From Roseivirga sp. UBA6061 (GTDB lineage Bacteria; Bacteroidota; Bacteroidia; Cytophagales; Cyclobacteriaceae): 23,690 nt of DNA. Each line of letters opens with the position of its first letter. The stretch's first letter is position 1. The notes beneath the pieces are model-generated. The model was not told where the DNA came from. It saw only the letters and a program-made list of their open reading frames with translations, and made no database searches. Below are positions 10,062-23,420 of the stretch, piece by piece. The translations under genes were made by a program, and so were the position numbers. Where the stretch lies: positions 1 through 23,690 of the forward strand of contig DIYF01000102.1 of the NCBI GenBank assembly GCA_002427745.1. The letters are read 5' to 3'.

Positions 10062-13000
10062 ATGATTTGGAACCTTAAAATAGTGCGGCCCGCCTGGGTA
10101 GTGGCACTCTTGTACTGCATTTGTTTTCCCCTTACCGGGAGCACCTCTTCAGAAGACAAGGGCGGGCCTTATCCCAGACATGCCATCAGTTTTCAGCCCA
10201 CTGACGCCTCTACTTCGCCTCAGCCGAATGCTACCGGTGTTTCGCGCACAGCCAACATCGTCATGAAGTTTTCGGCAGCCGTGGATGCGTCCACTGTGAC
10301 CAGTGCCAACTTTGTTTTCTGGGGTGAAAGAACCGGATATATTACAGGTTCATTCAGCGGTGGAGGTACCAACACCATCACTTTTACCCCTGCGAGTTCC
10401 TTTAAAGCCGGTGAGATTATCTGGGTTACCATCACAGCGGATGTGGTAGAAGACGGAACCAGCAATAACCTTTCTAACCCATACAGCTATCGCTTCACCA
10501 CCGCTGCCAGTACTATCAACAACTCTCAGTTTCTCGATCCTGAGTTTTTCAACGATCATGAGACCCTGATTCGGGGCTTCTATTCTGCAGACATCAATGG
10601 AGACGGTCGTCCGGATGTGATCAGTGCTTCAGATACGGATACTACACTGGCCTGGTATGACAGCGGCAACGGCTTCGCCCGCACGAGGATAGACAGTACC
10701 TCGGGCAAAAACTATTATAGCATTGTGGCCGCTGACATGGACAATGACCAGGACATGGATATTCTGTACGCAGCCTACAAAGACAGTGAGCTGGGGTGGT
10801 TTGAAAATACAGCCGGTGACGGCAGTGCCTGGACCAGAGCTACGATTCAGACCGGGCTGAACAGTATCAGAGACCTCTACCCTGCTGATATGAACAACGA
10901 TGGCTTTACTGACATTGTGATTGTGCACCCCGGGGCCACTCCCTCCATTGCATGGTTTAAACATGACGGCAACACCAATCCATCATTCGGAAGTAAACTG
11001 GTGATCAACAATCTGGGGGTGTCTCCTCATGGCGTTCGCATTGGTGACCTGGATGAGGATGGCTATGCCGATCTGGTAGTAGCACAGCAAGACACAGTCT
11101 ACTGGATCAAAAACAATGGCAATGAGACTTTTGACAGCACAATTGACGCAGCAGATACCATTGTTACTTCACGAAGGTACGATACAAGTTCCGGCAGGTT
11201 GTTTTATGACATTTACATAGAAGATGTTAATAATGACGGACATCTCGATGTGATTCCTGGTGTGGGCTTACAAGCCAATACCTTGGGTAACCGGGATATA
11301 GCCTACTTTTCAGGCAATGGCAGTGGTGGTTTTAGCTATAACAGCGTTGGTGAAGTCAGTACCGCCAACTATGAATCCAAAGCTGCTGACATGAACGGAG
11401 ATGGCCATATCGACCTTGTGGCAAGCAATACGGCCGGCACCTATCACCTGTTTATAAATGACGGAGCGGGAGCTTTTACCGAGACACAGGTAGCAGTAGG
11501 ACTGAATCAAAACAGAACCTTTGAGCTGGCAGATATTGATAATGATGGTGATATGGACCTGGCAGGAGCTTCAATCACCCATGATACGGTCTTTTGGTTC
11601 CAGCAGGTGCCCCAACTAGAAGTCAGTTCCGTGAGCCCCACAGTTAATGCAACAGACATTGCCCTCAATTCAGATATCACCTTTACTTTTAATGTAGATG
11701 CCGGCACAGGTACCTCCTCCAATATTATTGTCAGAGGTGAATTTCAGGGTAACATTGAGGGCGTTTTTTCCACCAGTACCAATACCATCACTTTCAATCC
11801 GAACAGTGATTTTATTGAAGGAGAAGTAATATATGTCACTCTCACCACTGACCTCAAAAGTGCAGAAGGAGGTAATCTGGTATCTCCTTATTCCTTTCAG
11901 TTTACCGCAACAAGCTCCGGAAAACCCTATAACTGCTATTGTGAGAACATTATTACAGATGGATCAGCAACCGAAAACTTCAGAAGTGTCTACCCTGTAG
12001 ACCTGGATGAAGATGGTGATATGGATGTGATCGCTACTTCCATTAACGATACGCAAACAGACTCAAAACTATTCTGGTACCGGAATGACGGGCAAGACGG
12101 CTTTGTCGAAAATGAGATTGCCACAGTTAATACAGCATTTGGCCTGGCGGTAGCCGATTTTGACGGAATCAACGGACTCGATATTGCCGTTGGCGGAGCC
12201 TCTCTGAAGCTTTTCCTTAATGATGGTGACCAGACCTTTGTTGAAAGCACCATCAGTGCTACCGGAAGTTACCGCTCCGTCCACTTTGTCGATATGGATG
12301 GCGATGCCGATCTGGATATCATAGGCACTGCTTATGTAGAATCAGGAGGTGTCAACTGGTGGCAAAACAACGGCAATGATCCCTTCACAAAAAACAGTCT
12401 GGGTACCATCAGTCAACCCAACGGACTCCATTTTGGTGACATCGACCGTGACGGTGACATGGACATTGCGGCAGTTCATCTTTCTGGCCGTGAAGTGGCC
12501 TGGTACAGAAATGATAATAACAGCTTTACTGAGCTGACCATCGATGACACCTTTACCAGTAACGACCCCTACGCTACCTACCTGGCCGATATGGATGGCG
12601 ATGGGGATCTGGATGTGGTTGTGGCGCTTCTCAGCAATGACATCTATTGGTATGAAAACGACAACCTTACCTTTACGCGCAGAGATACTCAAATCAGCGT
12701 CACCTCTGCCCGTCATGTCTACGCTGCCGATGTAACAGGCGATGGCCATATGGACATTGTCGCCTACGGGCATAGCGCTGACCTTACCCTGCTGGTCAAT
12801 GATGGCAACCCGGCAGGAGGAAACGACTATCCGGAGTTTACCAAAGTACAGGTCAATACAGGAAACACGGGCGGTGCAGCCGTTTATGCTGTGGACATGG
12901 ACAATGACGGCATCCTGGATATTCTCTCCGGTGGCGGTGTATTTCAGAACCTGAGCGATGGCAAACTTGCCTGGTACAAGGGCTCTTATGATGTCAACCT

Positions 13001-16000
13001 GGAGCCGTTGAATTCAAGCCCGGCTCCCTATGCGACCGGAGTAGCCAGAGACAGCAAAATCAAAATGACCTTCAATGCCGGAGACATTCTGGATGATAAT
13101 ACGGCCAGCAACATTCTTATACGGGGCAATCGTTCCGGAGTACTTGACGGCACTTTTACCGTAAGCAAAAGCGGCAGTGCAGACACTGTTATTTTCACTC
13201 CCACCAACAATTTCTTTGCCGATGAAATCATTCATGTTTCCCTTACCAAAAGCTTTACTTGTAAGGCCTACACCTATGAGTTCAGGGCTGCTTCGGCTCC
13301 GGCAGGTCACCTGACTTATAAAATCATGGACACGCTGGCTACCAACCGCTCTGTTCCACGCGGGATTCGGCTGGCAGACCTGAATAAAGACATGCGTCTG
13401 GACGTACTGGCATCTACTGATGGAGATACCGCCTCCTGGTTTAACGGAGATGGCAGCTTTACCGAGACCATTCTGGACAATGGTTCACAACTGAGCGTTG
13501 GCAGCAAACTCTACCACAAATTATTCAATATAGATATCGATGGTGACGGAGATCAGGATGTGGTTTATACCTCCAATTCAGATTCTGAAATAGGATATTT
13601 TAAAAACCAGGGAGCCCCCGGCTACACCATCAGCACCACCAAAACGGTAATACATCAGTCTTCTGTTAATGCCAATGGGGTCAGGAATGTACAACCTGCA
13701 GATATAGATCATGACGGAGATCTTGACCTTTTCTACGTGGCTCCCGGTAACAGTACCCGGCTGGCCTGGCTGGAAAACAACGGGGCGACAGATCCGACTG
13801 TAGCGGACTTTACCTACCATGAAATACATATGTTCAGTACCAACCCCACGGAAGGCCTGAACCTGGCAGATACTGACAATGATGGCGACCTGGATATCGT
13901 CACGGGCACCCAAAACGAGATCAATCTTTTCGAAAATGACGGCAATGCTAATTTCACACAAAAGACCCCGGTCATCAGAAGTGGTACAGCCAGTTACCGT
14001 TCAATTCAAACAGCCGACATGGATGGTGATGGCGACCTGGATATTATCCCGGCTCTGGGTTCAGAAGCCAAAGTCGTTTACTACAAGAACAACGGGAATA
14101 ACAGCTTCAGCGAAGAGCTTATAGAAACCATAGCGGGCAACATATTTGAAGTGGCCGCTGCCGACTTTGATGGTGACGGAGATAACGACATCATGGTAGT
14201 AAACAATACCGATATCGTGTACTGGTATCAGAATGATGGAACGGGAATAGCCGCCAACTTCACAGAAATTCAGCTGGATACTAACCAAAGTGGACTACAG
14301 ACTATTGATGTGGGCGATCTGGATAATGACAATGACCTCGACATTATTATTGGCTCCACCTCATCGCAAAACGTATTCTGGCTTAAATGCATTACAGCCA
14401 GTCTTACCAGCCTGAGCGCCTCCCCCGACTCAAGGCTGGCAGATGGTTCTGAATCGTCCACAATAAGTGTACAATTGATTGATGAAGACGGAGACGTGAT
14501 CAATATATCCGGTTTGGACGTGACTTTCTCTTCCAGCCACGGTGATTTAAGCAGTACCACAGCTACCACCAACAGTTTAGGAGTAGCAACGGTTACAATT
14601 ACTGCCACACAAAAAGGAGATGCCTCCATTACCGCCACCGTTGACCATGATGGTGAGACCGGTACAGCTCAGAACGAAGTGGTTAATGGTAGCCCTGCCA
14701 CCGTCAAATTTTTCGTATCCCCCACCGGCAGCATTACCAACCTCTCACTTTGGTTACGCGCAGACCAACCCGGCACAGCCTATGCCCATAATGCCGCCAT
14801 GTCGAGTGGCTGGGAAGATTACGGACCTGCTGAGAATGACGCGTCTGTCAGCGATGGAAGCCCTACCTTTTTCGATAACGCTTCCAGTACCCTGAACTTC
14901 AACCCCCGGGTAAGCTTTGACGGGAACGATGCTTTCAGTCTGCTCGATGCTTCTCTCCTGCCCAATGGCAGCTCTGCCAGAACTTATTACATGGTCAGTA
15001 CCAATACCGACAATGCTCATGGCGCCATCACGCAGTTTACACATGGTAATAATGCACCGGGAGAGGCAGCCTCCGTAGTTCAGAACTCAGGAGGTAACGA
15101 AGCAGCCTTTCTTGCAGGAGTGTTCGGAGTAGGTGGCACTACCAGAGGGGTTTCAGGTAGCACCAGTACACAAGCCGAGGTGGTTGCTATACGGCTTCCT
15201 GATGGCAATACGACCAATACAGAGATTCAGGTAAACGGAGATATTAAGACTGTATCACTCTTGTCCGGTAGTGACCGTACAATCAATACAGGCACCGATG
15301 CCGCTTATATAGGTCGTCATTTTCTCGGTATCGCTACGGATGCTTACTCTGGAGAAATTCAGGAAATCATTGTATTCGATTCTTATCTGGATGATGCCAC
15401 TTCGCAAAAGACAGAATCCTATCTGGCTCTGAAATATGGTATTACCCTCAGTAATGATTTTGATCAGGATGGCACCCCTTTTGAATTTACAGGAGAAGAA
15501 TATGGTGAAGGCACCTATATCATGTCCGATTTTACGCCTTACTGGGAGGTCTCCAATGCTCAGTTGCAACAGTATCATCATGACGTAGCGGGCATTGGCC
15601 GTGATGATATGGCCGGGCTGGCGCAAAAACAGTCCAAAAGTATCAACAGCGATGCCATTCTTGCTATTGGGGTCGATAATGATGATGCGCTGGACGGCCT
15701 CGAAAGCACCAACAGCACTAACAACGGTACTCTGGCTAATAACAGGGCATTCCTGACCTGGGGTAATAATAACAAGCCTCTTGATCCCGAACCCGATGAC
15801 CCTGCCTACACCCAGATTCCGGCCGGAGTGAACAGCCGGCTCAACCGACAGTGGTATGCACAGAGAGTCGGTACAATCGGCACAGTCACCCTGCAGTTCG
15901 ATGTGAGTAACCTGCCCGGACTATCGGGAGCGGGCACCAATGTTGAAGCCGATATTAAACTGCTGGTTTCAGATGAGGACGACTTCACCTCTCCCACTGC

Positions 16001-16688
16001 CACAGTTTCCATTATCCAGCAAGCTCTGGTCACAGACGGAGACGGTCTGGTAAACTTCCGATATAACTTCACCACCGGTACCTACTTCACACTGGGGTCT
16101 GCAGAAGAGTCTGCGCTGGCGGTAAACCTGGTAGATTTTGACGCCCGGCTTCAGGATCAGACGGTACTGCTTGAGTGGAGCACCTCATCTGAAGATGATC
16201 ACAGCCATTTCAGAATTGAAAAGAGTGCAAATGGTACGCATTTCGAAACCCTGGCACTTAAAAACACCGGCTACAGTCAAACCACATTAAAAACATATCA
16301 GCATACCGACCCGGCTCCTTTCGCTGGGCACAACTACTACAGGCTGGTAGATGTTGACATGAACGGAAGAGAGAATATCTCCAAAATCGTTCGTGTACAT
16401 TATCAACCGCGTACCGATGCCTTTGCATTGAAAGCTCCCTTCCCCAACCCGGTAAAAAAGGGAGAGCTCATCCATATTCCGGTTTCACAGGCCCTGATTG
16501 AGGAAAACCTGCGCCTGAGGCTCCACAATGTCTCAGGTAAGCAAGTCATTCATCAATCGCTGACCAGAGACAGGACCAAAAACCGGATCGACCTGCCTAC
16601 AGGACACATCCCCTCCGGGCTTTACCTGTTGGAGATAGTCCTTGATTCAGGGCAAAAATTCTATTCCAAGATCATCATCCAGGACTGA
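10062..16688 (+). CDS. Giant secreted multidomain protein: 3 x (Ig-like + seven FG-GAP repeats), T9SS sorting domain
   Basis: 2208 residues. After a signal peptide (about 1-27) come three units: SbsA-like Ig domains (Big_5) at about 43-148, 519-622 and 980-1080, each followed by a block with exactly seven D-x-D/N-x-D-G-x-x-D calcium loops (about 167-518, 637-977, 1097-1445). Next are a Big_1/invasin-like Ig domain (about 1447-1553), a LamG-like region (about 1560-1797, opening LWLRAD), a segment typical of Bacteroidota surface proteins (about 1797-2015, SYLALKYGITL), an FN3-like domain (about 2020-2117) and a type IX secretion sorting domain (about 2123-2208, PFPNPV... ending FYSKIIIQD). It should cross the outer membrane by T9SS and be released or attached. 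Adhesion or ligand binding is inferred; there is no enzyme motif. The small gene downstream starts 6 bp after the stop. Confidence 0.92.
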   Translation: MIWNLKIVRPAWVVALLYCICFPLTGSTSSEDKGGPYPRHAISFQPTDASTSPQPNATGVSRTANIVMKFSAAVDASTVTSANFVFWGERTGYITGSFSGGGTNTITFTPASSFKAGEIIWVTITADVVEDGTSNNLSNPYSYRFTTAASTINNSQFLDPEFFNDHETLIRGFYSADINGDGRPDVISASDTDTTLAWYDSGNGFARTRIDSTSGKNYYSIVAADMDNDQDMDILYAAYKDSELGWFENTAGDGSAWTRATIQTGLNSIRDLYPADMNNDGFTDIVIVHPGATPSIAWFKHDGNTNPSFGSKLVINNLGVSPHGVRIGDLDEDGYADLVVAQQDTVYWIKNNGNETFDSTIDAADTIVTSRRYDTSSGRLFYDIYIEDVNNDGHLDVIPGVGLQANTLGNRDIAYFSGNGSGGFSYNSVGEVSTANYESKAADMNGDGHIDLVASNTAGTYHLFINDGAGAFTETQVAVGLNQNRTFELADIDNDGDMDLAGASITHDTVFWFQQVPQLEVSSVSPTVNATDIALNSDITFTFNVDAGTGTSSNIIVRGEFQGNIEGVFSTSTNTITFNPNSDFIEGEVIYVTLTTDLKSAEGGNLVSPYSFQFTATSSGKPYNCYCENIITDGSATENFRSVYPVDLDEDGDMDVIATSINDTQTDSKLFWYRNDGQDGFVENEIATVNTAFGLAVADFDGINGLDIAVGGASLKLFLNDGDQTFVESTISATGSYRSVHFVDMDGDADLDIIGTAYVESGGVNWWQNNGNDPFTKNSLGTISQPNGLHFGDIDRDGDMDIAAVHLSGREVAWYRNDNNSFTELTIDDTFTSNDPYATYLADMDGDGDLDVVVALLSNDIYWYENDNLTFTRRDTQISVTSARHVYAADVTGDGHMDIVAYGHSADLTLLVNDGNPAGGNDYPEFTKVQVNTGNTGGAAVYAVDMDNDGILDILSGGGVFQNLSDGKLAWYKGSYDVNLEPLNSSPAPYATGVARDSKIKMTFNAGDILDDNTASNILIRGNRSGVLDGTFTVSKSGSADTVIFTPTNNFFADEIIHVSLTKSFTCKAYTYEFRAASAPAGHLTYKIMDTLATNRSVPRGIRLADLNKDMRLDVLASTDGDTASWFNGDGSFTETILDNGSQLSVGSKLYHKLFNIDIDGDGDQDVVYTSNSDSEIGYFKNQGAPGYTISTTKTVIHQSSVNANGVRNVQPADIDHDGDLDLFYVAPGNSTRLAWLENNGATDPTVADFTYHEIHMFSTNPTEGLNLADTDNDGDLDIVTGTQNEINLFENDGNANFTQKTPVIRSGTASYRSIQTADMDGDGDLDIIPALGSEAKVVYYKNNGNNSFSEELIETIAGNIFEVAAADFDGDGDNDIMVVNNTDIVYWYQNDGTGIAANFTEIQLDTNQSGLQTIDVGDLDNDNDLDIIIGSTSSQNVFWLKCITASLTSLSASPDSRLADGSESSTISVQLIDEDGDVINISGLDVTFSSSHGDLSSTTATTNSLGVATVTITATQKGDASITATVDHDGETGTAQNEVVNGSPATVKFFVSPTGSITNLSLWLRADQPGTAYAHNAAMSSGWEDYGPAENDASVSDGSPTFFDNASSTLNFNPRVSFDGNDAFSLLDASLLPNGSSARTYYMVSTNTDNAHGAITQFTHGNNAPGEAASVVQNSGGNEAAFLAGVFGVGGTTRGVSGSTSTQAEVVAIRLPDGNTTNTEIQVNGDIKTVSLLSGSDRTINTGTDAAYIGRHFLGIATDAYSGEIQEIIVFDSYLDDATSQKTESYLALKYGITLSNDFDQDGTPFEFTGEEYGEGTYIMSDFTPYWEVSNAQLQQYHHDVAGIGRDDMAGLAQKQSKSINSDAILAIGVDNDDALDGLESTNSTNNGTLANNRAFLTWGNNNKPLDPEPDDPAYTQIPAGVNSRLNRQWYAQRVGTIGTVTLQFDVSNLPGLSGAGTNVEADIKLLVSDEDDFTSPTATVSIIQQALVTDGDGLVNFRYNFTTGTYFTLGSAEESALAVNLVDFDARLQDQTVLLEWSTSSEDDHSHFRIEKSANGTHFETLALKNTGYSQTTLKTYQHTDPAPFAGHNYYRLVDVDMNGRENISKIVRVHYQPRTDAFALKAPFPNPVKKGELIHIPVSQALIEENLRLRLHNVSGKQVIHQSLTRDRTKNRIDLPTGHIPSGLYLLEIVLDSGQKFYSKIIIQD

Positions 16689-17241: not shown

Positions 17242-17335
17242 CTGACTGACAAGACCCTTCAACAAAATCTGTGCTTTCCTCACCTTTTCTCCACCACACC
17301 CCTCCTACTAAAACCTGACAATCTGTCAGATTTAG
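17242..17335. promoter_or_regulatory. CTGACA/TGTCAG sites and dyad upstream of miaB
   Basis: CTGACTGACA lies at 17242-17251. At 17315-17329 CTGACA-ATC-TGTCAG forms a perfect 6+6 dyad, flanked by CTAAA (17308-17312) and TTTAG (17331-17335), which extend the symmetry. The dyad overlaps the expected -33 region of the miaB promoter, so a protein bound there could repress or activate. The same decamer and half-site occur in front of groES. Confidence 0.55.
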
Positions 17336-17347
17336 GTGAGAAAGCCT

Positions 17348-17355
17348 TATATTTG
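17348..17355 (+). promoter_or_regulatory. Candidate -7 box (TATATTTG) for the miaB operon
   Basis: An exact match to TAnnTTTG lies 29 bases before the miaB ATG at 17385 and downstream of the preceding hairpin terminator. The predicted leader is about 20-25 nt. No clear TTTG -33 element is present, and the region where it should lie is occupied by the CTGACA/TGTCAG dyad, which suggests activator or repressor dependence. Confidence 0.5.
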
Positions 17356-17384
17356 CAGCCTGAAAATTGGCTCAGAAAGAAGGC

Positions 17385-18851
17385 ATGGAGAATTTAATTC
17401 AGGATATAGATCTGCTCGACAGAAACAGTGAAGAAGCACAGGAAGTAAAAACTTCTAAAGAAGAGAATACCGGTAAGCAAAAGAAGCTCTATATAGAAAG
17501 CTACGGCTGTCAGATGAATTTTGCTGATAGTGAGATTGTCACCTCTATTATGAAAGAGAACGGCTATGACACGACAGCGGATTTTGCCAGTGCCGATGTG
17601 GTTTTTCTGAATACCTGCTCTATTCGCGAGAAGGCTGAACAAACCGTACGCAACAGACTCAACCACTTTAACGCTGTAAAAAAGAACAAGCCGGATATGA
17701 CCATCGGAGTACTGGGTTGTATGGCTGAACGACTCAAAGAACAGCTACTGGAAGAAGAAAAAGTCGTGGATGTGGTGGTGGGACCAGACGCTTACCGCGA
17801 CCTGCCAAAGCTGGTAGAAAAAGCCGAAGACGGGCTAAAAGCAGTCAACACCTTCCTCTCCAGAGAAGAAACCTATGCCGACATCTCCCCCGTTCGCCTC
17901 AACTCCAATGGCGTGACAGCCTTCGTTTCTATTATGAGAGGTTGTGACAATATGTGTTCTTTCTGTGTGGTACCCTTTACCCGGGGCCGTGAGCGCAGTC
18001 GCGACCCGCATTCTATTGTTCAGGAGGCCATGGACCTTTTCAATCAGGGCTATAAAGAGGTGACGCTGTTAGGTCAGAATGTAGACTCCTACAAATGGTC
18101 TGAAGCTGAGAACAACAAGGCCTGGTTAGAAAAGAAAGAGCGCAAAGGTGAAGAAGTAGAAGTGGTAAACTTTGCCAACCTGCTGGAAATGGTGGCCAAA
18201 GTATCTCCTGAACTAAGGGTTCGTTTCTCTACCTCTCACCCTAAAGACATTACGGATGAAGTGCTACACACGATGAAGCGCTACGAAAATATCTGCAAGT
18301 ACATCCACCTGCCGGCTCAAAGCGGCAATACCAGAGTACTGGAATTAATGAACAGAACCTATACACGAGAGTGGTACATCAACCGTGTAGATGCCATTCG
18401 CGAGATTCTGGGTGAGGAATGTGGTATTTCTTCCGATATGATTGCGGGATTCTGTACAGAGACAGAAGAAGAGCATCAGGAATCACTGACCTTAATGGAC
18501 TACGTGCAGTACGATTTCTCCTATATGTTCTTTTACAGTGAAAGACCCGGCACGCTGGCTGCGAAGAAATATGAAGATGATATCCCGCTGGATATTAAGA
18601 AGAAGAGGCTCAGGGAGATCATCGAGAAGCAACAGGGCATCTCACTGGAACGCAATAAGCTGGATGTAGGTAAAGTGCACAAAGTACTGATTGAGGGTAC
18701 CAGCAAGCGTTCGGAAGACTTCTTACAGGGTAGAAACACCGCCAATAAGGTGATCATCTTCCCTAAGGAGCAATATGAAAAAGGCCAGTATGTAAATGTA
18801 CTGGTAGACGACTGTACCGCAGCCACGCTTTTTGGCAAGGCGGTAGTCTAA
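17385..18851 (+). CDS. miaB: tRNA-2-methylthio-N6-dimethylallyladenosine synthase
   Basis: 488 residues from the ATG at 17385. The frame could extend to a TTG at 17367, but homology begins after residue 30. This radical-SAM methylthiotransferase adds the methylthio group to i6A37 of tRNAs reading UNN codons. The N-terminal UPF0004 domain (about 34-150) has the three auxiliary-cluster cysteines C42 ([11 protein letters not shown]), C78 (NTCSIREKA) and C112 (GCMAERL). The radical-SAM CxxxCxxC is C187, C191 and C194 ([10 protein letters not shown]), followed by FTRGRERSR. The C-terminus is a TRAM domain. YGCQMNxxDSE and [11 protein letters not shown] separate MiaB from MtaB and RimO. It heads the operon that continues with the sigma-54 activator (15-bp gap). 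Confidence 0.96.
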
Positions 18852-18866
18852 ACTCAAAAAAACAAC

Positions 18867-20132
18867 GTGAATCATAGCGAGATACTAAGTATAAAACAGC
18901 GGTTCGGTATTATAGGCAACAGCCCTAAGCTGAATCATGCCATACAGGTGGCCTCTCAGGTGGCCCCTACCGACATGTCGGTATTGATTACAGGAGAGAG
19001 TGGTAGTGGTAAAGAATCCTTTTCCAAGATCATTCACCAGCTGAGTGCCAGAAAGCACGGCAAATTCATCGCCATAAACTGTGGCGCTATTCCGGAAGGC
19101 ACCATCGACTCTGAGCTATTCGGTCATGAAAAAGGTTCGTTTACGGGAGCTTATGAGGCACGTAAAGGTTATTTCGAGGTAACGGATGGTGGCACCATAT
19201 TTTTGGATGAGATTGGTGAGATGCCTCTTTTCACCCAGGCCAGGCTGCTCCGTGTACTTGAAAACGGAGAGTTCATCAAAGTGGGAGCCTCCAAAGTACT
19301 GAAGACCAACGTGCGCGTGGTGGCTGCCACCAATGTAGATCTGCTCAGGGCCGTAGAAAAAGGCAAGTTCCGTGAAGATCTATTCTATCGCCTCAGTACT
19401 GTACCTATCTCTGTGCCTCCCTTGCGTGAGCGGGGTAATGATATTGATTTGCTGTTCAGAAAATTCGCCACAGACTTTGCAGAAAAGTACAGAGTGGAGT
19501 CTATCAAACTGGACGAAGCAGCAAAAAGCAGGCTGCTCAGGTTCCGATTTCCGGGAAATATTCGCCAACTCAAGAATATTGTTGAACAAATTTCGGCTTT
19601 AGAGCTCAACAGGAACATCACTGAAGACACTTTGGTAAAGTATTTGCCTCAGAATTCATCGAATCTGCCTGCGGTGTATCGTGGAGAAAACGGAGGAGGT
19701 GAAAGTCTCAATGAGCGTGACCTCCTGTACAAGGTGCTTTTTGATATGAAAAAAGACATGACCGAGCTTAAAAAACTCGTTCATGATATGATACAAAGTG
19801 GCGAAGTAGATACGGGAGTCATTCAGGAACACCCGAATCTCTTCAGGAATCTGGACAAGGAATTGCCGGCCCATGAAGAGTTTATATCAGAACCTGTAGC
19901 CCCTGTCTACTACGAAACCCAGCCGGTGGAAACACATGATTACGAGCTTGAAAAGGTGGAGGACATCACCCATGAAATGGAAGATGAGTCACTGTCAATC
20001 GAAAAGAAAGAAAAAGAGCTCATTGTAAAAGCCTTGAAAAAGAACAATAACAAAAGAAAGTATGCGGCTAAAGACCTGGGGATTTCAGAAAGAACACTTT
20101 ACAGAAAAATCAAGCAGTATGAGATCGAGTAA
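18867..20132 (+). CDS. Sigma-54-dependent activator (AAA+ enhancer-binding protein) lacking a receiver domain
   Basis: 421 residues from GTG 18867. The AAA+ domain begins almost at once: Walker A GESGSGKE (43-50), sigma-54-contacting loop GSFTGA (90-95, one change from GAFTGA), Walker B TIFLDEIGE (110-118) and arginine-finger region RLSTVPISVPPLRERGNDI (175-193). About 245-380 is a long charged linker with a probable coiled coil. A Fis-type helix-turn-helix closes the protein (384-421, KKNNNKRKYAAKDLGISERTLYRKIKQYEIE). There is no N-terminal receiver, GAF or PAS domain, so as with PspF activity must be set by a partner protein, the linker or expression level. It overlaps the lptE start. Likely targets include the groESL promoter downstream, and sites resembling its candidate operators lie before miaB. 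Confidence 0.93.
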   Translation: MNHSEILSIKQRFGIIGNSPKLNHAIQVASQVAPTDMSVLITGESGSGKESFSKIIHQLSARKHGKFIAINCGAIPEGTIDSELFGHEKGSFTGAYEARKGYFEVTDGGTIFLDEIGEMPLFTQARLLRVLENGEFIKVGASKVLKTNVRVVAATNVDLLRAVEKGKFREDLFYRLSTVPISVPPLRERGNDIDLLFRKFATDFAEKYRVESIKLDEAAKSRLLRFRFPGNIRQLKNIVEQISALELNRNITEDTLVKYLPQNSSNLPAVYRGENGGGESLNERDLLYKVLFDMKKDMTELKKLVHDMIQSGEVDTGVIQEHPNLFRNLDKELPAHEEFISEPVAPVYYETQPVETHDYELEKVEDITHEMEDESLSIEKKEKELIVKALKKNNNKRKYAAKDLGISERTLYRKIKQYEIE

Positions 20133-20649
20133 ATCCATCTGGATCATTCTGCTCACAAGTACATTGCTGACTGCCTGTGGAGCTTATAGCTTCAACGGGG
20201 CGTCTATTGATTATAATAAGACCAAAACCCTTTCAGTAGCTAATTTCTTTAACGATACAGCCGGTGGACCTCCTAATATGGGGCAGACCTTCACAGAAGA
20301 ACTCAGAGAGTACTTTCAGCGAAATACGAAGCTGGAGCTGGTACCCTCTAAAGGAGATCTGCAGTTTGAAGGAGCTATCTCCAGCTATACGGTAAGACCC
20401 CAGGCCGTTACTTCATCAGGTAGCAGAACACAAAGTGATCAGTCGGGACTTATGCGACTGAGTATCAACGTTGAAGTGGCATTCACCGACACTACTGATG
20501 AAGAGAAAGGCTTCAAAAGAGGCTTTTCATTCTATGCCGATTATGACCCTCAGCGCAGTACCCTGACGGCTGTGGAAAATGATCTGGTTGACGAGATTTT
20601 CGAGCAGATAATTTTCGACATTTTTCAGGCCTCGGTTGCCCAGTGGTAA
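20119..20649 (+). CDS. lptE: LPS-assembly lipoprotein LptE
   Basis: 176 residues from the ATG at 20119, inside the last codons of the activator gene (14-bp overlap). A longer frame upstream is shadow coding. The signal peptide ends in LLTACGAYSF, with Cys20 of the lipobox LTAC. The mature part carries the Bacteroidota LptE pattern: GASIDYNKTKTLSVANFFNDT, a central F-x-x-E-L-R-E-Y-F segment and a C-terminal helix (VDEIFEQIIFDIF). LptE forms the plug of the LptD outer-membrane translocon that inserts lipopolysaccharide. lptD is not in the window. Overlap with the activator gene implies translational coupling. Confidence 0.87.
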   Translation: MRSSKSIWIILLTSTLLTACGAYSFNGASIDYNKTKTLSVANFFNDTAGGPPNMGQTFTEELREYFQRNTKLELVPSKGDLQFEGAISSYTVRPQAVTSSGSRTQSDQSGLMRLSINVEVAFTDTTDEEKGFKRGFSFYADYDPQRSTLTAVENDLVDEIFEQIIFDIFQASVAQW

Positions 20650-22979: not shown

Positions 22980-23059
22980 CTGTCATACTGGTGAAAGATT
23001 GGCAGGCTTAGAGGTCTGACTGACATGACAGCTGCAACAAAGTCACCAAAAGTCTGACA
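22980..23059 (+). promoter_or_regulatory. Candidate activator sites upstream of groES
   Basis: CTGTCA (22980-22985), CTGACTGACA (23016-23025, continuing as the near-palindrome CTGACATGACAG at 23020-23031) and CTGACA (23054-23059) lie about 45-125 bp upstream of the predicted start site of the sigma-54 promoter. This is the usual zone for enhancer-binding protein sites. The decamer recurs upstream of miaB (17242-17251). Confidence 0.5.
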
Positions 23060-23077
23060 AAAATGCACGATTCCGGC

Positions 23078-23094
23078 TTGGCACACTTCGTGCT
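23078..23094 (+). promoter_or_regulatory. Sigma-54 (-24/-12) promoter for groESL
   Basis: TTGGCACACTTCGTGCT matches the sigma-54 consensus TGGCACR-N4-TTGCW with a single change (GTGC for TTGC). The invariant GG (23080-23081) and GC (23092-23093) are separated by exactly 10 bases. Predicted transcription start is near 23105, giving a leader of about 37 nt before the groES ATG. A housekeeping box is poor here: the nearest string, ATAATTTG (23108-23115), misses the TA. Confidence 0.65.
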
Positions 23095-23141: not shown

Positions 23142-23420
23142 ATGTCAAAAGTAAACATTACTCCACTTGCAGACAGAGTGCTTGTAGAGCCGGCACCTGC
23201 TGAAGAGAAGACTGCTTCTGGTCTTTACATCCCCGATACTGCCAAAGAAAAACCTCAGAAAGGTATTGTGGTAGCTGCTGGTGCAGGTAAAAAAGATGAG
23301 CCGCTTACTGTAAAAGAAGGCGACACTGTACTCTACGGAAAGTACGCTGGTACTGAAATCACTGTAGAAGGCAAAGACTACCTCATCATGAGAGAGTCTG
23401 ACATTTTTGCAATTGTTTAA
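23142..23420 (+). CDS. groES: Co-chaperonin GroES
   Basis: 92 residues. This 10-kDa co-chaperonin forms the heptameric lid of GroEL. It opens with the family's [12 protein letters not shown] and includes the mobile loop [21 protein letters not shown], which contacts GroEL, then [14 protein letters not shown] and the closing [13 protein letters not shown]. Length is typical of the family (about 92-97). groEL starts 30 bp downstream with no terminator between, so this is the usual groESL operon. Regulation appears to be through the -24/-12 promoter upstream. I see no CIRCE element (TTAGCACTC-N9-GAGTGCTAA) in the leader. Confidence 0.98.

What the first reader, a model, noticed from the sequence alone, without database searches (positions are those of the whole stretch)
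23078..23094. Sigma-54 promoter in front of groESL
The groES leader contains TTGGCACACTTCGTGCT, with GG and GC exactly 10 bases apart and one mismatch to the sigma-54 consensus, and no good TAnnTTTG housekeeping box and no CIRCE. Chaperonin operons are usually run by sigma-32, HrcA/CIRCE or a housekeeping promoter, so sigma-54 control of groESL would be unusual and would make chaperonin synthesis strictly activator-dependent.
Basis: partly seen in the sequence, partly recalled or inferred. Interest (0 to 1): 0.75.

Follow-up and report, generated by a model that had tools for sequence, protein, structure and literature searches.

The report
Sigma-54 switch for chaperone genes
The start signal in front of the chaperonin genes really is of the sigma-54 type, is shared by the relatives examined, and comes with a repeated binding site whose likely reader, a partner protein needed to switch it on, is encoded a few genes away.

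Summary
Confirmed and extended. The site (23078-23094) is real: GG-N10-GC, predicted start 23105. Alone it is not beyond chance in this window, but conservation is decisive: all 58 same-family groES leaders (own included) and 75 of 80 named Bacteroidota leaders score 10 or more out of 12 (shuffles 3.2 of 50, 3.65 of 80). RpoN is present, HrcA absent. Sigma-54 groESL is not new in this phylum: it was start-site-mapped in Flavobacterium psychrophilum (PMC9723704). New, as far as I could search, is the activator side. A palindrome, CTGaCAaWtTGtCAG, lies upstream of groES, dnaK and grpE promoters at distances stepping by 10.5 bp, so on one helix face. Its best copy in the window (17315-17329) precedes the miaB operon, whose second gene (18867-20132) is a sigma-54 activator without a sensor domain. 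A palindrome recurs before miaB in 21 of 21 named and 19 of 19 further miaB-activator operons, followed by an exact housekeeping -7 box in 16 and 17 of them. I infer that this protein binds the site, activates the chaperone genes and represses itself, as PspF does. Binding, heat induction and signal are untested.

The parts
23078..23094 (+). -24/-12 sigma-54 promoter of groESL (GG 23080-23081, GC 23092-23093); predicted start about 23105
   Evidence: conservation
23054..23068 (+). upstream palindromic site 1, CTGACAAAAATGCAC, centre about -44 from the predicted start
   Evidence: PWM 11.6
23032..23046 (+). upstream palindromic site 2 (weak), CTGCAACAAAGTCAC, centre about -66
   Evidence: PWM 8.1-8.5
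22991..23005 (+). upstream palindromic site 3, GTGAAAGATTGGCAG, centre about -107
   Evidence: PWM 14.8-15.2
23142..23420 (+). groES (Cpn10)
   Evidence: PF00166
23451..23690 (+). groEL, start only (cut by window end)
   Evidence: sequence; named by position and recalled N-terminal sequence, no search made
18867..20132 (+). sigma-54 activator (enhancer-binding protein) with no N-terminal sensor domain: sigma-54 interaction domain 15-181 and lid to 266, HTH_8 378-418; candidate activator of the chaperone genes
17315..17329 (+). best copy of the palindromic site in the window, CTGACAATCTGTCAG, in front of the miaB-activator operon
   Evidence: PWM 18.6, top of the window; conserved
17348..17355 (+). 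TATATTTG, housekeeping -7 box (TAnnTTTG), 18 nt after the palindromic site
   Evidence: sequence; similar geometry in most relatives
17367..18851 (+). miaB, first gene of the activator operon (ATG alternative at 17385)
   Evidence: UPF0004, Radical_SAM, TRAM:
20062..20649 (+). lptE, downstream of the activator
   Evidence: PF04390
21768..22124 (+). secG, same cluster
   Evidence: PF03840

Best explanation
groESL here is transcribed by RNA polymerase with sigma-54 from the -24/-12 site at 23078-23094, and is one target of a chaperone regulon (groESL, dnaK, grpE). The activator is most likely the sensor-less AAA+ enhancer-binding protein at 18867-20132. It would bind CTGaCAaWtTGtCAG sites lying on one face of the helix relative to the promoter, and its GSFTGA loops would use ATP to open the sigma-54 complex. 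The same protein would bind 17315-17329, over the -33 region of its own housekeeping promoter, and hold its own level down. Shown by sequence statistics: conserved promoter, conserved palindrome, helical phasing, the palindrome at four kinds of promoter (groES, dnaK, grpE, miaB-activator), conservation of the activator. Inferred: that this protein is the one that binds, that binding at its own promoter represses, and that its activity is set by a partner protein (perhaps a chaperone) since it has no sensor domain.
For: Promoter: (above). RpoN in 291 of 296 Bacteroidia genomes. Palindrome found by EM without using position; PWM 10 or more in 50 of 50 family and 68 of 80 named leaders, shuffles 2.0 and 1.0 (the PWM was fitted to these same leaders). 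Positions relative to TTGGCA have best period 10.5-10.6 bp, R 0.84 in both sets (84 and 95 sites, nR2 59 and 68; largest of 500 random sets 9.2 and 8.6); in 112 of 130 redundancy-reduced leaders R 0.83, but R 0.17 when anchored on the ATG. dnaK: 30 of 30 leaders have promoter and palindrome. grpE: 25 of 30 as scripted; the own genome and G042 were added by a pattern search. Helical phase 0.62, 0.58 and 0.62 turns for dnaK, grpE, groES. Pattern palindrome-N-TGGCA in 18 genomes: 41 hits against 3 for the reversed pattern; of the 30 made into loci, 17 are grpE or dnaK leaders and 13 lie inside long frames; the own genome's only hit is grpE. Palindrome before miaB-activator: 21 of 21 named miaB loci at 14.7 or more; 24 of 28 named activator loci at 14.5 or more against 26 of 1759 background windows that still contain those promoters; best site of the fetched 2.7 kb before miaB in 19 of 19 more (scores 12.0-19.9), with TAnnTTTG 16-19 nt after it in 17. 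Activator ortholog, 54-72 percent identical over nearly full length, in each of the 36 other Bacteroidia genomes; recognition helix among the most conserved residues.
Against: No binding, mutant or expression test. The own genome has 14 activator-domain matches, so another protein could bind. The window's own groES palindromes are imperfect (14.8, 11.6, 8.1). 12 of 80 named leaders score under 10 for the palindrome. In 34 leaders from genomes chosen mainly for small size, the promoter reaches 10 in 32 but the palindrome reaches 9 in only 29. Three grpE leaders of 30 show no palindrome of 9. Of 54 named loci with at least 7.1 kb upstream of groES, 25 have the activator there, so linkage is not general. 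Of 7 named activator loci without miaB in front, 4 lack a good site, and the 1.2-Mb G400 has none in the 2.7 kb fetched. In G174, the one genome examined with a single activator domain, the groES -12 G is lost. Five of 296 genomes show no RpoN, four of them with RpoN-bearing genus mates. Sites centred near -44 are close for a sigma-54 enhancer (recalled).
Confidence: 0.8

Rival explanations
1. The promoter is sigma-54 dependent and the palindrome real, but the palindrome is bound by a different activator or another DNA-binding protein; the miaB-linked activator is merely one of its targets.
For: The own genome has 14 activator-domain matches; a site near a promoter shows regulation of that gene, not the identity of the binder. 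Activator and groES are unlinked in G174 (C2:361603 and C2:90911) and in 29 of 54 named loci with enough upstream DNA.
Against: Small genomes of the class often have only 1-3 activator domains, and those of them also (G061, G100, G112, G162, G166, G174) keep this ortholog; the palindrome is the strongest site of the locus at the activator's own promoter in most of the 28 named activator loci; where both are on the fetched stretch they lie within about 7 kb (28 named loci).
Confidence: 0.14
2. The groES leader is served mainly by a housekeeping sigma-A promoter, the -24/-12 site being secondary.
For: GroEL is essential as a rule (recalled), so some basal supply is needed; 13 of 80 named leaders have TAnnTTTG after the -24 element, 9 of them exactly 17 nt after the start of TTGGCA.
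Against: Only 1 of 50 same-family leaders has TAnnTTTG between the -24 element and the ATG; none within one mismatch of the two-box pattern tested in the window leader.
Confidence: 0.05
3. The site is a short inverted repeat (GCAC-N5-GTGC), a degenerate CIRCE or other repressor operator, not a promoter.
For: In the window TTGGCAC and GTGCTAA are nearly complementary.
Against: Relatives keep TGGCA and the -12 G but not the complementary arm (the base before TG is A in 31, G in 14 of 50); no HrcA match in the genome.
Confidence: 0.01

Closest known systems
Sigma-54 (SM4) chaperone promoters of Flavobacterium psychrophilum (PMC9723704, passages read)
   Same: Start sites mapped with -24/-12 motifs for groESL, dnaK, grpE-dnaJ, htpG, lon, clpB.
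   Different: Activator left open there (three PF00158 proteins, distinct activators suggested); 'palindrom' and 'upstream activ' do not occur in its main text. Here a shared phased palindrome and a candidate activator are added, in a family whose nearest named groES relative is Roseivirga pacifica.
Computed sigma-54 regulon survey (PMC12316311, passages read)
   Same: GroES, GroEL, IbpA, GrpE, DnaK, DnaJ groups enriched for predicted sigma-54 promoters in Bacteroidota (and Planctomycetota).
   Different: 'uas', 'upstream activ', 'palindrom' and 'pspf' do not occur in its main text; the passages name no activator for the chaperones.
PspF of enterobacteria
   Same: Sensor-less AAA+ activator with a Fis-type HTH; autorepression by a site at its own sigma-70 promoter (both recalled).
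   Different: Far below the PspF model's cut-off (273 against 443.55 bits); about 110-residue linker with one conserved helix; sits with miaB, lptE, secG, not psp genes.
Bradyrhizobium japonicum groESL3
   Same: A chaperonin operon with an RpoN promoter (PMC4842269, passage).
   Different: One of several groESL copies, driven by NifA in nitrogen fixation (recalled).
HrcA/CIRCE and sigma-32 heat-shock control
   Same: Coordinates groESL, dnaK, grpE (recalled).
   Different: No HrcA match in the genome and no exact CIRCE in the window; sigma-32 was not searched.

Membership tests
Sigma-54 (-24/-12) promoter | GG and GC 10 bases apart, TGGCA-type -24 element | tested here: met
Sigma-54 (-24/-12) promoter | conserved at that spacing in relatives | tested here: met
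   58 of 58 family, 75 of 80 named leaders at score 10 or more; spacing scan
Sigma-54 (-24/-12) promoter | genome encodes RpoN and at least one activator | tested here: met
Sigma-54 (-24/-12) promoter | upstream activator sites | tested here: met
   palindrome and helical phasing; binding itself not tested
Sigma-54 (-24/-12) promoter | transcript starts about 12 nt after GC and needs RpoN | not testable with these tools
   needs RNA work
Sigma-54 enhancer-binding proteins | AAA+ sigma-54 interaction domain with GAFTGA-type loop and HTH | tested here: met
   PF00158, PF02954; GSFTGA in 33 and GAFTGA in 24 of 58 orthologs, one without a match
PspF (TIGR02974) | score over the equivalog cut-off | tested here: not met
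   273 against 443.55 bits
PspF-like working mode | no N-terminal regulatory domain | tested here: met
   AAA+ domain from residue 15; whole open frames of only 404-463 aa in the 37 Bacteroidia genomes; model
PspF-like working mode | binding site at its own housekeeping promoter | tested here: met
   palindrome and -7 box
PspF-like working mode | represses its own promoter | not testable with these tools
   needs reporter or RNA work
HrcA/CIRCE | CIRCE in leader and hrcA in genome | tested here: not met
Housekeeping TAnnTTTG promoter | TAnnTTTG between -24 and ATG | tested here: not met
   1 of 50 family leaders

The most novel reading that the evidence does not exclude
The miaB-linked, sensor-less activator is the master heat-shock regulator of Bacteroidota, standing in for sigma-32 and HrcA: it reads one palindrome at groESL, dnaK and grpE, limits its own synthesis, and is held inactive by a chaperone through the conserved linker helix (residues 283-310), so that misfolded protein frees it. 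In members without a second promoter, RpoN and this activator would be essential.
Probability: 0.3. Interest if true: 0.85.

Novelty: new variant of a known kind. Interest (0 to 1): 0.66.

Why it matters
How Bacteroidota, a major gut and marine phylum, switch on their chaperones without HrcA is, as far as I could search, little described. The sigma-54 promoters were known in one species; a named DNA site and a single candidate gene turn the missing activator into a one-gene experiment. The 10.5-bp spacing record would also be a clean natural demonstration that the bound protein must sit on one face of the helix.

Tried and rejected
Lone-site significance: not significant, so conservation was used. 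One search used a spacing one base too long by mistake; it was kept as a control. The promoter score was written after I had looked at the leaders. Degenerate CIRCE or hairpin operator: rejected, the second arm is not conserved. Housekeeping promoter in the leader: rejected for this family. Co-loss test (RpoN lost, site lost): not possible, RpoN was missing in only 5 of 296 Bacteroidia genomes, probably assembly gaps. Single-activator elimination: only G174 of 52 genomes had one activator domain, and its groES -12 G is lost. Scrambled-motif control: of 30 column scrambles 5 had more than 15 hits, with nR2 5.0, 12.7, 15.0, 27.4 and 59.8 and 4-41 of 112 leaders at 10 or more (true motif 98); the strongest reads ATGCCAAATTGGCAT, close to the true motif, so this control is only partly informative and the ATG anchor is the cleaner one. 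An earlier count said 26 of 30 grpE leaders; the printed rows give 25. A first activator alignment caught only 9 sequences and was replaced by 58 and 29. The 34-42 residues before Walker A printed count from the BLAST match, not from the start codon, so the open-frame lengths were used instead. Structure: AAA+ and HTH well predicted, linker of low confidence; no fold search was made. Genomes of the phylum outside class Bacteroidia were searched for the activator but not for the groES site. clpB, htpG and lon leaders were not examined.

Full report
Observation. The sequence is as described. TTGGCACACTTCGTGCT lies at 23078-23094, GG at 23080-23081, GC at 23092-23093, and groES starts at 23142. 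There is no exact CIRCE in the window, no HrcA match in the 8.18-Mb assembly, one RpoN gene and no TTG-N20-TAnnTTTG within one mismatch on the + strand of the leader. On its own the match is not unexpected: the window holds 10 matches with up to two mismatches where shuffles give 13.3, and the genome holds 46 exact TTGGCAYN6TGC against 20 for the reversed pattern and 32 for a spacing one longer.

Conservation of the promoter. groES was found in 58 of 60 same-family genomes, own included. Leaders of 50 were scored for a -24/-12 site at every spacing from 6 to 15, with a score written after I had looked at the leaders: with 10 bases all 50 reach 10 and 45 reach 11; shuffled leaders give 3.2 and 0.6, and the best other spacing gives 15 and 3. 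The remaining 8 leaders also reach 10. The 80 loci kept from the named genome collection, spread over several orders of Bacteroidota by their titles, give 75 of 80 and 43 of 80; shuffles 3.65 and 0.45, best other spacing 29 and 5. GG is in all 130, the -12 G in 128 of 130; the C after it only in 54 of 130. The leaders are otherwise diverged: 112 of 130 stay after greedy removal of those sharing a tenth of their 9-mers. In 34 further leaders from genomes chosen mainly for small size, 32 reach 10. RpoN is in 291 of 296 Bacteroidia genomes.

A palindromic activator site. Motif search by EM on the 130 nt upstream of the promoter, with no position information, gave one strong palindrome of odd length 15, CTGaCAaWtTGtCAG. 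At a PWM score of 10 it is in 50 of 50 family leaders and 68 of 80 named leaders, against 2.0 and 1.0 in shuffles; the PWM was fitted to these same 130 leaders. In the 34 small-genome leaders, not used for fitting, 29 reach 9. In the window the copies are 22991-23005, 23032-23046 (weak) and 23054-23068.

Helical phasing. The distances from palindrome to promoter run mostly from about 24 to about 110 nt, but they fall into steps: about -25, -35, -46, -57, -67, -77, -87, -98. The best period, scanned from 7 to 15, is 10.5-10.6 bp with R 0.84 in both sets (84 and 95 sites at score 10); nR2 is 59 and 68, the largest of 500 random sets 9.2 and 8.6. A PWM rebuilt from family hits keeps the period with R 0.81-0.84 on 67 non-redundant named leaders; its starting hits came from the joint motif, so this is only partly independent. 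Anchored on the start codon the signal vanishes (R 0.17). This is what a protein that must sit on one face of the helix relative to the polymerase would leave. Of 30 column scrambles of the motif, 5 had enough hits to test and 3 of these gave nR2 of 15 or more; the strongest (59.8) is close to the true motif in letters.

The regulon. The same pair of elements is in front of dnaK in 30 of 30 family genomes and of grpE in 25 of 30 as scripted. Of the five misses, the own genome (start codon misassigned by the script) and G042 (the script preferred another stretch) do carry both elements; the other three (G055, G017, G021) show no palindrome of 9. dnaK, grpE and groES share one phase (0.62, 0.58, 0.62 turns). 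A strict pattern search (palindrome, 11-13 nt, TGGCA) over 18 whole genomes gave 41 hits against 3 for the reversed pattern; of the 30 hits turned into loci, 17 are leaders of grpE (14) or dnaK (3), four of these also overlapped by some long frame, and the other 13 lie inside long reading frames; 11 hits were not turned into loci. The own genome's single hit is its grpE leader. grpE was recognised by coordinates, dnaK by its N-terminal sequence.

The candidate activator. About three kilobases upstream, at 18867-20132, lies a 421-residue sigma-54 activator: sigma-54 interaction domain from residue 15, Fis-type HTH at 378-418, nothing recognisable in front. The whole open frames of the orthologs in the 37 Bacteroidia genomes are only 404-463 aa. 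The activating loop is GSFTGA in 33 and GAFTGA in 24 of 58 sequences; mean conservation is 0.71 for the HTH and 0.34 for the linker, which however holds a conserved helix around residues 284-304 (model, linker of low confidence). It is below the cut-off of each of the 25 NCBIfam models shown. Solved relatives by sequence are NtrC-family regulators, NifA, FleQ, ZraR and PspF. An ortholog at 54-72 percent over nearly full length is in each of the 36 other Bacteroidia genomes; outside the class the best hits are at 50 percent or less, apart from some shorter alignments up to 55.

The link between site and protein. The best palindrome of the 23.7-kb window is not at groES but at 17315-17329, CTGACAATCTGTCAG (18.6), in front of miaB, the gene before the activator, and 18 nt before TATATTTG, a TAnnTTTG housekeeping -7 box. 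Of 28 named activator loci, 21 have miaB in front and all 21 carry a site of 14.7 or more there; an exact TAnnTTTG follows within 45 nt in 16 of the 21, 15-20 nt after the palindrome in 13 and closer in 3. Of the 7 without miaB, 3 carry a good site. Only 26 of 1759 background windows of the same loci reach 14.5, and those windows include the activator promoters themselves. In 19 of 19 further miaB-activator operons from unnamed Bacteroidia genomes the best site of the fetched 2.7 kb (12.0-19.9) lies 41-128 nt before miaB, with TAnnTTTG 16-19 nt after it in 17; a twentieth genome, the 1.2-Mb G400 without miaB there, has none. In the window the site thus covers about the -33 region of the activator's own promoter. 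By analogy with PspF and NtrC (recalled) I read this as autorepression.

Counter-evidence. The own genome has 14 activator-domain matches. G174 has just one, the ortholog, and has the palindrome at groES, but its -12 G is lost. The activator is near groES in 25 of 54 named loci with at least 7.1 kb upstream, so linkage is common but not general. Some leaders lack a good palindrome. Nothing here shows heat induction, binding or direction of regulation.

What is known. In Flavobacterium psychrophilum 5'-end mapping put groESL, dnaK, grpE-dnaJ, htpG, lon and clpB under -24/-12 promoters, with the activator left open (PMC9723704, passages). A 2025 survey found the chaperone groups enriched for predicted sigma-54 promoters in Bacteroidota and calls GroES of B. 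thetaiotaomicron sigma-54 dependent (PMC12316311, passages). B. japonicum groESL3 has an RpoN promoter (PMC4842269, passage). The main texts of two B. thetaiotaomicron papers hold no word beginning rpoN or groE (PMC7366714, passages; PMC12596196, passage). In the listings of my ten paper searches and the passages I read, nothing names the palindrome or this activator; most subscription papers are not in that library.

Verdict. The finding is right; its stated rarity is wrong for this phylum. The new content is the phased activator site, the shared regulon in the family studied, and the activator gene next door with a conserved site at its own promoter.

Noticed in passing
L073, L076, L077, L078, L083, L088, L097, L122, L124 (groES leaders): In nine named leaders, several titled Chitinophagaceae, a TAnnTTTG box starts exactly 17 nt after the start of TTGGCA, so a housekeeping promoter seems to overlap the sigma-54 one.
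   Followed up: partly
window 23398-23412: A palindrome-like match (14.6) inside the 3' end of groES, seen at the same place (+255) in several relatives; perhaps a by-product of conserved codons.
   Followed up: no
window 10062-16688: A 2208-residue reading frame of repeated FG-GAP/VCBS-like blocks ending in what looks like a type IX secretion tail (by eye, no search made).
   Followed up: no
L077: The record is titled Streptomyces griseus but carries a Bacteroidota-type groES and leader; probably a mislabelled metagenome bin.
   Followed up: no
G220, G229, G235, G300, G427: No RpoN match in these five of 296 Bacteroidia genomes although four have genus mates with RpoN; probably assembly gaps.
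   Followed up: no
grpE and dnaK leaders, L252-L281 and L332-L361: The -24/-12 cores differ by gene: grpE often TTGGCAAAnTAATTGA, dnaK often TTGGCACAnCCnTTGT/A, groES often TTGGCAYARGAAATGC, as if promoter strength were set gene by gene.
   Followed up: no
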